A stretch of DNA of 64,000 nt from Agromyces sp. H17E-10 (GTDB taxonomy: Bacteria; Actinomycetota; Actinomycetes; Actinomycetales; Microbacteriaceae). The position numbers and the translations under genes are program-made. The stretch's first letter is position 1. Every line of letters starts with the position of its first letter. Under the pieces are notes generated by a model that did not search any database, was not told where the DNA came from, and saw only the letters and a program-made list of their open reading frames with translations. The stretch covers positions 372,001 to 436,000 of the forward strand of contig NZ_CP095042.1 in assembly GCF_022919715.1 (NCBI RefSeq). The letters are read 5' to 3'. Shown here piece by piece: positions 13,800 through 31,446 of the stretch.

Positions 13800-16700
13800 T
13801 CACGATTTCGACCGCGGATTCGGTTGCGCGCCGGCATCGAACCACGTGATCCTGCGCGCAGGCGAACCGGGCGATCTCGCCCATCCCTGACGGGAACCCT
13901 CGTCGAGCAGCGGCGGGAGTGCCCGGTCGCCCACGAGCGCGCGATACTCCGCGGCGGCACCGCGCACCAGGACGGTGGCGCGCTCGCGGATCCCCGCCGC
14001 GAGCGACCAGTTCGCGGCCCACCCGTCGGCGCCCCCGACATACGCGATCGGCCGGTCCTGGGCTTCCGCCGCTTCGTCGTCACTCCGCGACACCGCAACC
14101 GCGCCCGGTGCCACGGGTACGCCCGGTGCCACGGCGATCACCGTCGCGCCCAGCCGGGCGAACGTCTCGGCGTCGCCCACCGGGTCGATGGTCACGACGG
14201 CGTAGGAGCCGGAGCGTGCGAGGTCGAGCTCCGGTGCGCCGTCACGCGCGGCCCGCTCGCCGACGCCGCCCGTCGAGGTGATCGCGCCGGCCTCCTCGGC
14301 GACTCCGGCCGTCAGCGCGCACTGTACGCGGTGGCCGCGCCACTGCCCCGCACCGGGGCCGTCGTCGGCACGCCAGAGTTCGCCCGCTCCCCCGCCCTGG
14401 AGCAGGTCGGGCCGGGTCGGATGCCGCAGCAGGAGCCGCGACCCGAAGGCGTCGCGCAACTCGTGCGGAACGCCGAGCCACTGCACCGCCGACGCCACGA
14501 CGGCGACGCCGTGCGCGCGTCCCTCGCGCAGCAGTCGGGCGAGCCGCTCGATCGCCGCGGCCCGGTAATCGTCGGGCCAGTCGACGAATCGACGGTCGAG
14601 GTCGTCGATCACGATCAGGCGCGGCAGGCCGTTCGCTTCGTCGGGTCTTCCGAGTCTGTTCGTGAACGCGGCGAGCGCGTCCCAGACCTCGCTGCGCGGA
14701 CCGCCGAGTCGAGCGACTGAGCCGGAACCGTATCGGCGGGCCGCCGAACGTGCGATGGTGGCGAGCACGGTCGATCGTCCGCTGCCGGGCATCCCCGCGA
14801 CGAGCAGATTGCCGTCGGCACCCGGTCGCCACTCGGCGACGCTGCGGCGCTGCTCGGCGGGCAGGTCGACGAGGCCGAACGCGAGGCCGTCGCCCGGCTC
14901 GCCTGCCGATGCTGCCGCCGCCGACGACGAAGCGACGAACGCGTCGAGGTCGGCGCCCGTGAGCAGTGCGGGCAGCGGGTCGAGCCACGGACGGCGTGCC
15001 CGTGGCCGGCCGGCCGCGGCGACCTTCGCGCCCAGCACCGCCGCCTGGTCGGCGACGGCCGACTGGAAGAGCACCGGGTCGCCGTCGCCCCGGTCGATCA
15101 CGCCGCGACCCGGCAGGTCGGGCGGGATCGACGCCGCGGCGTCGACGCCGACGACCGCGAGGCTGTCGGCCCGCTGCATGACGCGGAGCGAGACCCGGAT
15201 CGCGCAGTTCGCGGTGACCTGCTCGCGTACGACGCCGTTGGGCCGCTGCGAAGCGAGCACGAGGTGCACGCCGAGCGAGCGGCCGCGGGCGGCGATGTCG
15301 GCGATCACCGCTCCGAGTTCGGCGAACTGCTCGATCATCGCCTGGAACTCGTCGACGACGATCACGAGCCGCGCGAGCTCGACGGAGCCGGTCAGCTCGC
15401 GCACGTCGCGCGCGCCCGCCCGGGCGAGCACCGACTCCCGATGCCGCAGCTCGGCGCGGAGGCTCTCGACCGCGCGTCGCGCCTCCGACCCGTCGAGATC
15501 CGTCACGATGCCGGTGACGTGCGGCAGGTCGCGGATGGGTTCGAACGCCGCACCGCCCTTGAAGTCGACCAGCAGGAACGACACCTCGAGCGGCGTGTAG
15601 GCCCGTGCGAGCGCGGTCAGCCATGCCAGCAGGAACTCGCTCTTGCCGCTGCCCGTCGTGCCTCCGACGATCGCGTGCGGGCCGTGGCGGACGAGATCGA
15701 GCTCGAGCGGTCCGCTCGCCGCACGCCCGACCGCGACGGCGAGGCTGCCTCGCTCGGGGTCGCGTCGTTCGCCGGACGGCGGCGGGAGTTCGGCGAGGGC
15801 GACCCGCTCGGGCAGCGGTGCGGGCGCGTCTCCGCCGAGGCGCTCGGCGAGTTCGGCGGCCGACGTGCACCAGCCGTTCGCCGCAGCGCGCGACACGAGC
15901 ACGGGCTCGATGCTCGCCGGCGCCGCGCCCGCGGCCTCGACGAGTGCGCGGCCGGGGCCCAGCAGGCGCACCACGGCGCCGATTCCAGGCGGCAGCGACC
16001 GCGCCTCGCTCGCCACGACGATTCGCGACGTCGCGTGCCCGCCGGCGTTCGCCTGGGCGGGATCGGCCATGGAGTCGATCAGTCGCACGAGCGCGGTGGC
16101 CGCGCTCGCTTCCGGCCGTTCCCCGCGCCGCAGGCCGGGCTCTGAACGTCGCGCGTGGCCCGCGGCGTGCGGGAGCCGCGCCGCCCAGGCCCACTCGGAC
16201 GACTGCGGGAGCTCGACGACCGCGACCGCGGGATCGACCCGATGGGCCCAGGCGATGAGGGCGGCCCGCGCGGCCGCCCTGGCCAGTTCGAGCGGACCGA
16301 CGAAGGCGAGACCGTGCGCCGGGTCGGCCACGACGGGTGCACCGACGAGTCGCGCGGCGCTCTCGAGCACAGCCCGATCGCGGGCGTCGGCGATCGTGCC
16401 CTCGACCCGCACCCGGCTGGCGACGATGCCCCTGCCGATCACCACCCGCCCCGGGCCGTCACCCGTCCAGGCCGGCCGCGCCGCGCCAGCGACGAGGGCG
16501 GCCGGAGAGGGCTCGGCGCGCCATGCCGCACGTCGCTCCTCGTCATGCCTGGCGAGGATCTCGGCCTCGAGCTCGGCCAGTTGCGCAGCGCGCGCCTGTT
16601 CCGCGCGATGCCGTCGGCGTCGCCCCTGCCGCCGCGCGTCGAGCACGGACGCCACGGCCACGAGCGGGCCGAGCGCGGCGAACATGAGGGAGTACATCGA

Positions 16701-16865
16701 CCCCGTGACCGCCCACAGTGCGAGCGCGCCGGCCACGGGCGCCGCGGCGGCGAGCAGCGGGAAGCCGGGTCGCTCGGGTTCGGACGGCACCGGCGGCAGG
16801 CGCAGCGGCAGGTGCACGGCGGGCAGGGCCTCATGGCCGGGTACGGCGAGCTCGGTCTGGTCCAC
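13800..16865 (-). CDS. FtsK/SpoIIIE-type ATPase, EccC-like (type VII secretion motor family)
   Basis: 1,021 residues. Two membrane helices lie at about residues 35-78, followed by a basic Arg-rich coiled-coil segment. The first ATPase domain has Walker A GGTTGSGKSE near residue 402 and Walker B LVIVVDEFQAM. A second, weaker one has AGMPGSGRST near 680 and LIVIDDLDRRF. EccC proteins of type VII secretion carry three such domains in about 1,300 residues, so this is a shorter two-domain form. It lies 119 nt after the zinc-ribbon FHA gene at the end of the kinase/phosphatase/FHA cluster. A DNA translocase role is less likely because the C-terminal gamma domain of FtsK is absent. No WXG100 substrate gene is adjacent. 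Confidence 0.8.
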   Translation of the reverse strand: MDQTELAVPGHEALPAVHLPLRLPPVPSEPERPGFPLLAAAAPVAGALALWAVTGSMYSLMFAALGPLVAVASVLDARRQGRRRRHRAEQARAAQLAELEAEILARHDEERRAAWRAEPSPAALVAGAARPAWTGDGPGRVVIGRGIVASRVRVEGTIADARDRAVLESAARLVGAPVVADPAHGLAFVGPLELARAAARAALIAWAHRVDPAVAVVELPQSSEWAWAARLPHAAGHARRSEPGLRRGERPEASAATALVRLIDSMADPAQANAGGHATSRIVVASEARSLPPGIGAVVRLLGPGRALVEAAGAAPASIEPVLVSRAAANGWCTSAAELAERLGGDAPAPLPERVALAELPPPSGERRDPERGSLAVAVGRAASGPLELDLVRHGPHAIVGGTTGSGKSEFLLAWLTALARAYTPLEVSFLLVDFKGGAAFEPIRDLPHVTGIVTDLDGSEARRAVESLRAELRHRESVLARAGARDVRELTGSVELARLVIVVDEFQAMIEQFAELGAVIADIAARGRSLGVHLVLASQRPNGVVREQVTANCAIRVSLRVMQRADSLAVVGVDAAASIPPDLPGRGVIDRGDGDPVLFQSAVADQAAVLGAKVAAAGRPRARRPWLDPLPALLTGADLDAFVASSSAAAASAGEPGDGLAFGLVDLPAEQRRSVAEWRPGADGNLLVAGMPGSGRSTVLATIARSAARRYGSGSVARLGGPRSEVWDALAAFTNRLGRPDEANGLPRLIVIDDLDRRFVDWPDDYRAAAIERLARLLREGRAHGVAVVASAVQWLGVPHELRDAFGSRLLLRHPTRPDLLQGGGAGELWRADDGPGAGQWRGHRVQCALTAGVAEEAGAITSTGGVGERAARDGAPELDLARSGSYAVVTIDPVGDAETFARLGATVIAVAPGVPVAPGAVAVSRSDDEAAEAQDRPIAYVGGADGWAANWSLAAGIRERATVLVRGAAAEYRALVGDRALPPLLDEGSRQGWARSPGSPARRITWFDAGAQPNPRSKS

Positions 16866-30475: not shown

Positions 30476-31446
30476 GTGTCCGGCCTGTCTCGCGTCGGGT
30501 GATCGACTCCCGGGGGTTGGAGGATCTCGACGATCGTACCGTCTCCGAGATCGAGGCTCATTCCCGGCACGACGACGATCGACTCCCCCGCGCGCAGCCT
30601 GCGCGGGGCCCGCGGTCCGACGACGGTCGTGCCGTTGGTCGACCGCAGGTCACTCGCGACGAGCCGCGCGCCCTCGACCCGCAGCTCGAGATGGGTGGAC
30701 GAGACGATGCGGCCGGGCGAGTCGACGGCGATCAGGCGCGGCGCACCGTGCGCACCGGGAATCCGCGGTGCTCCCGGCCGTCGGCCGATGAGCACCGACC
30801 CCTCGGGTGCGAACGGCTCGCCGCCCGCGACCCTGACCCACGGCAGCGGCGCCGGCGGCGGGACCTCGTCGGCCCCTGGCCCGGCGGTCGGGTCGGGCAG
30901 GGCACGCACCGTGTCGGCGTCGAGGGCCGCGGCCGGAGCCGCGTAGATCGTGTCCGCGTCGGCCGACGAGACCCCGGGTCGCCATTCCACGGCGGAGGCG
31001 CGAAGGCGCGCGCGGGCGTGTTCGACGAGCGCTCCCCCCGTGATCGATCCGAGGGGGGATGCTCCGCCGGTGAGTCGCACTCCGGACACGTCGTGGAACT
31101 CGGCGAGGTGCCAGGGTCTGATGCCGCGGGCGTCGAACCGGCGGCTCCCCCCGGGCGACTCGAGATCGACGACCGCACCTCCGCGTGCGACGGCCGTCAC
31201 CTCGGCCGGCTCGTCGCCCGGCCACCAGACGAGTGCGAAGTCCCGGTCGTCGACGTCGAGCCGCGCCGGGATCTGCTCGATGAGCCGTTCGAGGGCGAGC
31301 TCGTGGTCGCCCGCGAGACCGGCGAGCGCCGCGACGACCTCGTCGGGCGCGGGCGCCGAGAGGATCGCGATGAACCGCTCGCCGACGATCGCGTCCCAGG
31401 CGACGGCGCCCGGGACCGCATGGCTCGACACCGTCCCACGTGGCAT
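30472..31446 (-). CDS. FHA domain protein with unassigned N-terminal domain
   Basis: 324 residues. The first 150 residues form a domain I do not recognise (VERF-like core VGERFIAILSA, ALVWWPGDEPAEV); a distant relation to PP2C folds is possible but unproven. After a Pro/Ala-rich linker, residues about 210-310 are an FHA domain with VLIGRRPG, IVSSTHLEL and DLRSTNGTTV, the phosphothreonine-binding set. It opens the cluster and its stop overlaps the PP2C start. It is divergent from the asnC-type regulator, 136 nt away. Confidence 0.82.
   Translation of the reverse strand: MPRGTVSSHAVPGAVAWDAIVGERFIAILSAPAPDEVVAALAGLAGDHELALERLIEQIPARLDVDDRDFALVWWPGDEPAEVTAVARGGAVVDLESPGGSRRFDARGIRPWHLAEFHDVSGVRLTGGASPLGSITGGALVEHARARLRASAVEWRPGVSSADADTIYAAPAAALDADTVRALPDPTAGPGADEVPPPAPLPWVRVAGGEPFAPEGSVLIGRRPGAPRIPGAHGAPRLIAVDSPGRIVSSTHLELRVEGARLVASDLRSTNGTTVVGPRAPRRLRAGESIVVVPGMSLDLGDGTIVEILQPPGVDHPTRDRPDT

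What the first reader, a model, noticed from the sequence alone, without database searches (positions are those of the whole stretch)
13800..31446. Nine-gene phospho-signalling and envelope/export cluster around a giant Ig/Fn3 protein
FHA, PP2C, Ser/Thr kinase, 1,959-residue Ig/Fn3 protein, MoxR, DUF58, pseudo-transglutaminase, zinc-ribbon FHA and an EccC-like ATPase lie in one direction. Six junctions overlap by 1-4 nt (GTGA, TGATG, ATGA, GTGA, ATGA, GTGA), so the parts are made in step. MoxR-DUF58-transglutaminase modules, FHA/kinase/PP2C circuits and EccC motors are each known; I know of no described function for this whole set. My inference is a phosphorylation-gated machine that assembles, anchors or exports the giant protein.
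Basis: partly seen in the sequence, partly recalled or inferred. Interest (0 to 1): 0.7.

Follow-up and report, generated by a model that had tools for sequence, protein, structure and literature searches.

The report
Widespread PFNA operon tied to secretion
A nine-gene cluster in a soil-type actinobacterium turns out to be one copy of an ancient envelope-machine operon that was thought to exist only in Bifidobacterium, and in many relatives it forms one gene string with a type VII secretion motor, which points to export or surface assembly rather than to sensing an animal host.

Summary
In detail: nine minus-strand genes at 13800-31446, six junctions overlapping by 1-4 nt. The core (kinase, 1959-residue giant, MoxR, DUF58, transglutaminase-like protein, with PP2C and FHA) matches, gene by gene, the PFNA operon of Bifidobacterium, which papers call Bifidobacterium-only and host-sensing. 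Here it is in 61 of 119 sampled genomes of the order, sporadically in other classes, and four times in this Agromyces-like genome. The transglutaminase lacks its catalytic Cys in 122 of 122 rows: a pseudo-enzyme, Bifidobacterium included. In 20 genomes of 8 families a distinct EccC ATPase lies within 8.4 kb downstream, followed by WXG100-type genes in 13 of the 16 such loci read; 29 of 32 genomes with that EccC have the core. So the core is probably the envelope part of a phosphorylation-controlled type VII-like machine. Against a simple reading: 32 of 61 core-bearing genomes lack that EccC, and the window's own EccC is another, shorter lineage seen in the operon only in this genus, without WXG100 beside it. 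Gating is plausible; EccC exporting the giant is not supported. New variant of a known kind.

The parts
30472..31446 (-). FHA1: N-terminal PP2C-like (PPM) fold without the DGxGG metal motif, plus C-terminal FHA domain (324 aa)
29639..30475 (-). PP2C-type Ser/Thr phosphatase with DGMGG and related motifs present
   Evidence: PP2C_2 38.6 bits; motifs
28116..29555 (-). Membrane Ser/Thr kinase (VAVK, HRD, DFG, APE present; one TM-like stretch 362-393; short outer part); counterpart of pkb2
   Evidence: Pkinase 136.1 bits; motifs; hydropathy
22237..28116 (-). Giant 1959-aa protein: N-terminal TM (10-37), beta-propeller (about 41-361), Big_9/cadherin-like array, Fn3-like region, variable C-terminus; counterpart of fn3
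21269..22240 (-). MoxR AAA+ ATPase; counterpart of aaa-atp
   Evidence: AAA_3 210 bits, AAA_lid_2, bpMoxR 43.3 bits; GTGKT present
19959..21272 (-). DUF58 membrane protein; counterpart of duf58
   Evidence: DUF58 48.6 bits; TM-like stretches between 19 and 96
17671..19962 (-). TgpA-like multi-TM protein with a transglutaminase domain lacking the catalytic Cys and His (IGDGEQYA, RQAW); counterpart of tgm
   Evidence: TgpA_N and Transglut_core; Cys in 0 of 122 rows; control TgpA of the same genome has Cys and His
16985..17674 (-). Zinc-ribbon plus FHA protein (229 aa)
   Evidence: Zn_Ribbon_1 23.8 and FHA 17.6 bits, both under their cut-offs; CxxC pairs and GRK..SKTH..SSNG residues visible in the sequence
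13800..16865 (-). EccC-type FtsK-like ATPase, 1021 aa, two TM-like stretches near the N-terminus, two Walker A motifs; no FHA hit, unlike the other EccC of this genome
   Evidence: FtsK_SpoIIIE 111.2 bits; motifs; hydropathy; trees; FHA in the other EccC

Best explanation
The run is one of four copies, in this Agromyces-like genome, of an old actinobacterial operon described so far, in the papers seen, only as PFNA in Bifidobacterium. Shown: the core giant-MoxR-DUF58-pseudo-transglutaminase, often with kinase, PP2C and FHA genes, is conserved across many families; the transglutaminase site lacks its Cys in every row examined; a distinct EccC, mostly with WXG100-type genes, sits in the same gene string in 8 families. 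Inferred mechanism: the giant is inserted by its own N-terminal anchor, its propeller sits at the outer membrane face and its Ig/Fn3 rod of nearly fixed length spans the wall; the pseudo-transglutaminase membrane protein and DUF58 form the membrane base that holds it; the MoxR ATPase remodels DUF58 to assemble or open the base; the kinase and phosphatase switch this through FHA readers, one fused to a dead phosphatase fold. Where the cognate EccC is present, the base serves a type VII-like export of WXG100-class proteins. In the window's genus a different, short EccC has been added to the operon, perhaps for the same job.
For: Homology to PFNA: 60 of 61 Bifidobacteriaceae loci show kinase-giant-MoxR-DUF58-TG in order, the 61st (L095) being a short contig; B. 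saguini (L082) is one of the species said to carry all eight PFNA genes (PMC8430577). Spread: TG or giant N-terminus over 100 bits in 61 of 119 genomes of the order; all four core genes on one strand in 53 of 57 fetched regions; full-length giants also outside the order. Pseudo-enzyme: Cys in 0 of 122 rows, His in 14, Asp in 35; the E and Q after the lost Cys in 122 of 122. EccC link: 32 of 119 genomes have the clade (over 800 bits, next best 472); 29 of the 32 have the core; in 20 it lies 0.04-8.4 kb downstream of TG on the same strand, in 8 families. Fisher p 8e-8 by genome, 0.0011 by genus. The 16 PFNA-linked EccCs put in the tree fall in one clade of 23 rows with 7 unlinked ones (SH-aLRT 99, quick tree). 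WXG100 by Pfam at or over cut-off near EccC in L139, L141, L143, L149, L158, L162, L163; L144 just under. In another class, L169: giant-MoxR-DUF58-TG-WXG100 (66.6 bits)-four genes-EccC fragment. Mostly short or negative spacing. Near-constant length of the giant.
Against: 32 of 61 core-bearing genomes lack the PFNA-associated EccC, among them all seven core-bearing genomes of the Bifidobacterium family f4, so the core must do something without it. Genomes are related, so the p-values overstate independence. The window's own EccC is of another lineage and no WXG100 gene was predicted beside it; in this genome the cognate EccC with FHA and WXG100 lies 2.5 Mb away along the contig. 8 of the 28 placeable genomes have the two unlinked, all in f1 and f14. 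No WXG100 was found near EccC in L152, L155 and L157. No protein interaction or complex was tested.
Confidence: 0.55

Rival explanations
1. Stand-alone surface or wall-tether system: kinase, phosphatase and FHA proteins control MoxR-dependent assembly of the giant on the base, for adhesion or wall sensing; type VII genes nearby are later neighbours that share the phospho-control but are not functional partners.
For: 32 of 61 core-bearing genomes lack the associated EccC; the three other own-genome clusters show no EccC in the fetched stretches; the Bifidobacteriaceae loci, read 10 kb to each side at most, show none.
Against: The one-way dependence (29 of 32 EccC genomes have the core), one EccC clade in the string in 8 families, an EccC fragment and WXG100 gene in the string in another class (L169), and a second EccC lineage recruited in Agromyces.
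Confidence: 0.33
2. Host-immune sensing: as published for Bifidobacterium, the kinase and the Fn3 giant recognise host cytokines and the operon is a species-specific host-communication device, the Fn3 domains perhaps acquired from eukaryotes.
For: Published TNF-alpha binding of an FN3 fragment and induction by TNF-alpha (PMC10688814 passages; PMC8430577 abstract and passages).
Against: Those papers state that orthologs were not found in other organisms (PMC6803598) or that FN3 is found only in Bifidobacterium (PMC10688814). Colinear homologs occur in Agromyces, Cryobacterium, Microterricola and many unnamed families and other classes, with the Fn3 region aligned to the Bifidobacterium one (25% over 231 sites). 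It can at most be a late add-on in Bifidobacterium.
Confidence: 0.05
3. One reading: the EccC motor exports the giant protein.
For: Same operon; EccC-family motors export proteins.
Against: The giant begins with a hydrophobic anchor at 10-37 (helix 7-33 in the model), the look of a Sec-inserted protein; giants of similar length exist in genomes without the associated EccC; known type VII cargo is WXG100-like (recalled).
Confidence: 0.05

Closest known systems
PFNA operon of Bifidobacterium (pkb2-fn3-aaa-atp-duf58-tgm, some with prpC, a hypothetical gene and fha)
   Same: Same five core genes in the same order and strand, giant with TM and Ig/Fn3 make-up, PP2C and FHA as extras
   Different: Here PP2C and FHA stand upstream of the kinase, a zinc-ribbon FHA and an EccC follow TG, there are four copies in one genome, and the organism is not Bifidobacterium; PMC8430577 has no mention of EccC, FtsK or PP2C by those words
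T7SSd / T7SSe (Garrett, Higginson, Palmer 2024, PMC11217815)
   Same: Parts list: membrane kinase, (in e) PPM phosphatase and FHA protein, large Ig-like envelope protein TsdI, EccC/EssC with FHA, WXG100; the PFNA-linked EccC clade is next to the clade that holds an EccC from B. mellis in what I read as a T7SSd locus
   Different: [quoted passage not shown] the candidate TsdI of B. mellis (1800-aa frame, L194) gives no hit to the giant's profiles at E<=0.01; MoxR, DUF58 and transglutaminase have 0 occurrences in that paper's main text; the two loci lie about 24 kb apart in B. mellis
T7SSa (ESX) of actinobacteria
   Same: EccC-family ATPase and WXG100 proteins
   Different: EccCs with EccD nearby form another clade (SH-aLRT 100); EccD (TIGR03920) has no hit in this genome and is over cut-off in only 2 of 32 genomes with the PFNA-associated EccC
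MoxR-DUF58-TgpA three-gene modules and MoxR-vWA-propeller ternary systems (PMC7159879)
   Same: MoxR next to DUF58 and a TgpA-like protein; a propeller is also present here; the window MoxR passes the bpMoxR cut-off
   Different: TG is dead here; the propeller is the N-terminal part of a giant; PMC7159879 has 0 occurrences of DUF58 (passages only); the same genome has an ordinary MoxR-DUF58-TgpA set with Cys and His
T6SS threonine-phosphorylation pathway (PpkA-PppA-Fha1; recalled)
   Different: No T6SS genes among the nine; here phosphatase-like and FHA domains are fused in one protein

Membership tests
PFNA operon | Order kinase-Fn3/Ig giant-MoxR-DUF58-TG on one strand | tested here: met
PFNA operon | Giant homologous along its length to bifidobacterial FN3 | tested here: met
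   16 giants align colinearly, window to Bifidobacterium 27%; regional identities 25, 31, 36, 25 and 16% from N- to C-terminus
PFNA operon | Confined to Bifidobacterium (as published) | tested here: not met
   this claim fails, not the homology
PFNA operon | Kinase phosphorylates MoxR | not testable with these tools
   Stated for Bifidobacterium in PMC6803598 (passages)
Active transglutaminase / cysteine protease | Catalytic Cys-His-Asp | tested here: not met
   Window has Gly and Gln in place of Cys and His; Cys 0 of 122 rows; control has Cys and His, with Glu at the third site
Type VII secretion system (general), window operon alone | EccC/EssC ATPase | tested here: inconclusive
   Best NCBIfam match TIGR03928 at 236.8 bits, cut-off 778.4; a short EccC lineage
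Type VII secretion system (general), window operon alone | WXG100 gene in the operon | tested here: not met
   No gene of that size was predicted between 12460 and 31446; one stands beside the second EccC of the same genome
Type VII secretion system (general), relatives with linked EccC | EccC plus WXG100 in the same string | tested here: met
   WXG-type gene near EccC in 13 of 16 linked loci read (of 20 linked genomes); three of the 13 fed the profile; in L153 and L160 opposite-strand genes lie between; Pfam support
T7SSa | EccD channel | tested here: not met
   0 hits in this genome; 14 of 119 in the order over cut-off; a divergent EccD could be missed
T7SSd | Ig-like TsdI with C-terminal TM | tested here: not met
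   Giant has one N-terminal TM-like stretch only; no profile hit on the candidate TsdI
MoxR-vWA-propeller ternary system | MoxR, vWA and propeller protein as described in PMC7159879 | tested here: inconclusive
   bpMoxR over cut-off but AAA_3 far better; that DUF58 is vWA-like is recalled

The most novel reading that the evidence does not exclude
The PFNA core is the trans-envelope part of a separate type VII secretion subtype of actinobacteria: a giant propeller-Ig tether, a dead transglutaminase/DUF58 membrane base and a MoxR gate take the place of EccB/D/E or TsdI, under kinase/phosphatase/FHA control, and Bifidobacterium kept the shell after losing the motor.
Probability: 0.4. Interest if true: 0.82.

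Novelty: new variant of a known kind. Interest (0 to 1): 0.62.

Why it matters
It removes the premise of a published research line (an operon found only in Bifidobacterium and shaped by host immunity, with a transglutaminase enzyme), since the operon is widespread outside Bifidobacterium and its transglutaminase lacks the catalytic Cys in every row examined. It gives the orphan MoxR-DUF58-TgpA module a testable setting: a secretion-linked envelope machine with a defined gene set, and it offers a likely further type VII subtype outside T7SSa-j.

Tried and rejected
Window EccC as the operon's ancestral motor: a first tree placed it beside the PFNA-linked clade; adding 20 short EccCs moved it next to L206 of the same family, so the first placement is withdrawn. 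Both trees are quick searches with long rows, so placements are provisional.

EccC of L050 (f20), first counted as PFNA-linked, groups with the EccCs that have EccD nearby and was dropped from the link count. G039 was left out of the distance count (contig ends); G112 and G090 count as core-bearing by the giant, their TG hits being weak. Of the 20 linked genomes 16 were read and put in the trees; G104, G076, G024 and G030 rest on coordinates alone.

Early count 'EccC in 6 of 60 loci' was an artefact of regions that end about 4.7 kb after TG; and longer regions corrected it.

EccD avoidance by the EccC clade: 2 of 32 against 12 of 87, Fisher p 0.35, not significant; only absence in most is claimed.

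Terminator and promoter scan: no terminator-like site and 2 promoter-like sites, none at the operon ends on the operon's strand. A profile of 16 giants was too diverse for a DNA-pattern scan, so the named scan used a Bifidobacterium-only alignment and is biased to that genus; B. longum itself was not among its 63 loci.

My simple gene predictor is trained on this window and fails on some loci (nothing for L165, L207, L208, L213, L215; few genes in L152, L157, L194), so gaps such as those of L152 are not real spacing.

Literature searches for a type VII system with MoxR/DUF58/transglutaminase, or in Microbacteriaceae, showed none in their lists; one search listed 20 of 70 papers, seen as titles and abstract starts, and PMC5720513 and PMC4965825 there were not opened. 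Only open-licence PMC papers are searchable and supplementary files could not be read.

Hits at E<=0.001 of the phylum and class giant searches (27 of 198, 31 of 148) were in large part short, low-scoring propeller matches; only those over 100 bits with frames over 2000 aa are counted as full-length giants. Of six fetched regions with weaker matches (L174-L179), four show MoxR-DUF58-TG nearby and L177 and L179 do not.
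Full report
OBSERVATION. Upstream lies a divergent AsnC/Lrp-type regulator and a gene that reads as an aminotransferase by eye, downstream a solute-binding protein gene, so the neighbours are unrelated. The window is part of a 4.25 Mb single-contig genome. The named giants at the top of the protein list are nearly all from Agromyces, and a same-genus genome (G054) shares a 1154064-base contig length with 'Agromyces sp. CF514', so the organism is taken as Agromyces or a near relative; that Agromyces is a soil genus is recalled.

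WHAT IT IS. Literature search found the PFNA operon of Bifidobacterium (passages of PMC8430577, PMC6803598 and PMC10688814): pkb2, fn3, aaa-atp (MoxR), duf58, tgm, in some species prpC, a hypothetical gene and fha, co-transcribed in B. longum. These papers say that orthologs were not found in other organisms and that FN3 occurs only in Bifidobacterium. A scan of named genomes returned 63 loci: 61 of Bifidobacteriaceae, plus Microterricola pindariensis and an uncultured Actinomyces. 60 of the 61 show kinase-giant-MoxR-DUF58-TG in order; the other (L095) is a short contig with kinase and giant only. The unnamed family f4 of the genome search is Bifidobacteriaceae, judged by matching contig lengths.

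SPREAD. With the window TG as query, 84 of 119 genomes of the order match at E<=0.001; with TG or the giant's N-terminus over 100 bits the core is in 61 of 119 (59 by TG, 2 more by the giant). Of the 58 other genomes with TG over 100 bits I fetched 57 regions (G039, at a contig end, was left out): 53 of 57 hold giant, MoxR, DUF58 and TG on one strand; L021 and L057 lack a MoxR hit, L041 and L055 a giant, L055 at a contig end. This genome has four giant/TG clusters: the window, two in tandem near 3.60-3.62 Mb, one near 1.79 Mb. Beyond the order, giants over 100 bits with frames over 2000 aa appear in 5 genomes of family f94 among 148 class genomes and in G212, G223 and G249, of other classes, among 198 phylum genomes. 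Shorter propeller-only forms near MoxR-DUF58-TG occur in f21, f85 and f86 (L174, L175, L176, L178).

PSEUDO-ENZYMES. In 122 TG rows (60 named Bifidobacteriaceae, 62 others including the window; at least six pairs are the same contigs by length) the catalytic Cys column holds S 62, D 35, E 10, G 8, A 7 and never C; His is kept in 14 and Asp in 35, while the E and Q just after the lost Cys are kept in 122 of 122. A control TgpA of the same genome, in an ordinary MoxR-DUF58-TgpA set, has Cys and His, with E at the third site; it is a single control. [quoted passage not shown] a conserved non-catalytic role is likelier. FHA1 carries a PP2C-like fold without the DGxGG motif in front of its FHA domain.

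LINK TO TYPE VII SECRETION. A second EccC of this genome (1494 aa, Pfam FHA 49.5 bits, WXG100 next door at 43.9 bits) was searched in the 119 genomes: 32 hold a close relative (over 800 bits, next best 472), and 29 of these have the PFNA core; G062, G067 and G116 do not. In 20 of the 29 it lies 0.04-8.4 kb downstream of TG on the same strand, in families f5, f6, f8, f9, f10, f12, f13 and f18; in eight genomes of f1 and f14, this one included, it lies elsewhere; G039 is undecided at contig ends. Typical strings are TG-FHA-PP2C-FHA1-kinase-236 aa-EccC-WXG100, with overlaps or gaps mostly under 200 bases up to the first WXG100 (L150 has a 282-base gap, and L152 is badly predicted). The 236-aa protein reads as FHA plus a helix-turn-helix part by eye, without a Pfam hit. 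Of the 20 linked loci 16 were read: 13 have a WXG-type gene near EccC, three of which fed the profile, so 10 of 13 are independent; L152, L155 and L157 have none. In another class L169 reads giant-MoxR-DUF58-TG-WXG100-...-EccC fragment at a contig end, its clade unknown. Fisher p is 8e-8 by genome and 0.0011 by genus, without correction for descent. The 16 linked EccCs and 7 unlinked ones fall in one clade (99), away from EccCs with EccD nearby (100) and next to a clade (93) that holds the EccC of B. mellis (quick tree). EccD is absent here and over cut-off in 14 of 119 genomes, 2 of them among the 32.

AGAINST A SIMPLE STORY. 32 of 61 core-bearing genomes lack this EccC, all seven core-bearing genomes of f4 included. 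The window's own EccC is a short form in the operon of three of three genomes of the genus examined, grouping with L206 of the same family (99), which lies next to a PP2C gene there; no WXG100 stands beside it. So either the core has its own function and lends itself to EccC motors, or the shell outlived the motor in many lineages. Two EccC lineages joining the same operon favours a functional tie, without proving it.

COMPARISON. PMC7159879 (passages) describes MoxR-vWA systems without DUF58. PMC12067865 (passages) notes that the mycobacterial moxR operon resembles PFNA. In the lists I saw no paper joining PFNA with type VII secretion.

VERDICT. An already described operon core in a much wider and partly new setting: new variant of a known kind, with a testable and fairly surprising secretion link.

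Noticed in passing
G000:C1 near 3.60-3.62 Mb (L072, L073) and 1.79 Mb (L074): Three further PFNA-type clusters in the same genome; two are in tandem, with one PP2C/FHA/kinase set seen upstream of the pair.
   Followed up: partly
L139 (G000:C1:2918000-2937000): FHA-EccC-WXG100 locus between what read by eye as rpoC and the S12/S7/fusA/tuf genes; the same three genes adjoin in G054 (L167) and G047 (L163), with other genes before the WXG100 in G083 (L162).
   Followed up: partly
L168 (G021, same genus): A T7SSd-like locus: Ig-type 385 aa protein, EccC 1451 aa, zinc-ribbon FHA, two genes hit by the WXG profile and a 1599-aa open frame.
   Followed up: no
L067 / L141 (G066): The giant is reduced to its propeller (419-435 aa), yet the rest of the operon, EccC and WXG100 genes are present; the WXG100 pair is repeated 1370 bases on with identical proteins.
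   Followed up: no
L149:14770-16349: A WXG100-type pair repeated exactly 1000 bases apart with identical proteins; true tandem duplication or assembly effect not told apart.
   Followed up: no
L174-L176, L178 (families f21, f85, f86): Short propeller-only relatives of the giant near MoxR-DUF58-TG, perhaps a form without the Ig array; in L176 and L178 the predicted propeller gene is on the opposite strand.
   Followed up: no
L149:8249-8956 and counterparts: A conserved 231-239 aa protein before EccC, FHA-like in front and helix-turn-helix-like behind by eye, with no Pfam hit for the L149 copy.
   Followed up: no
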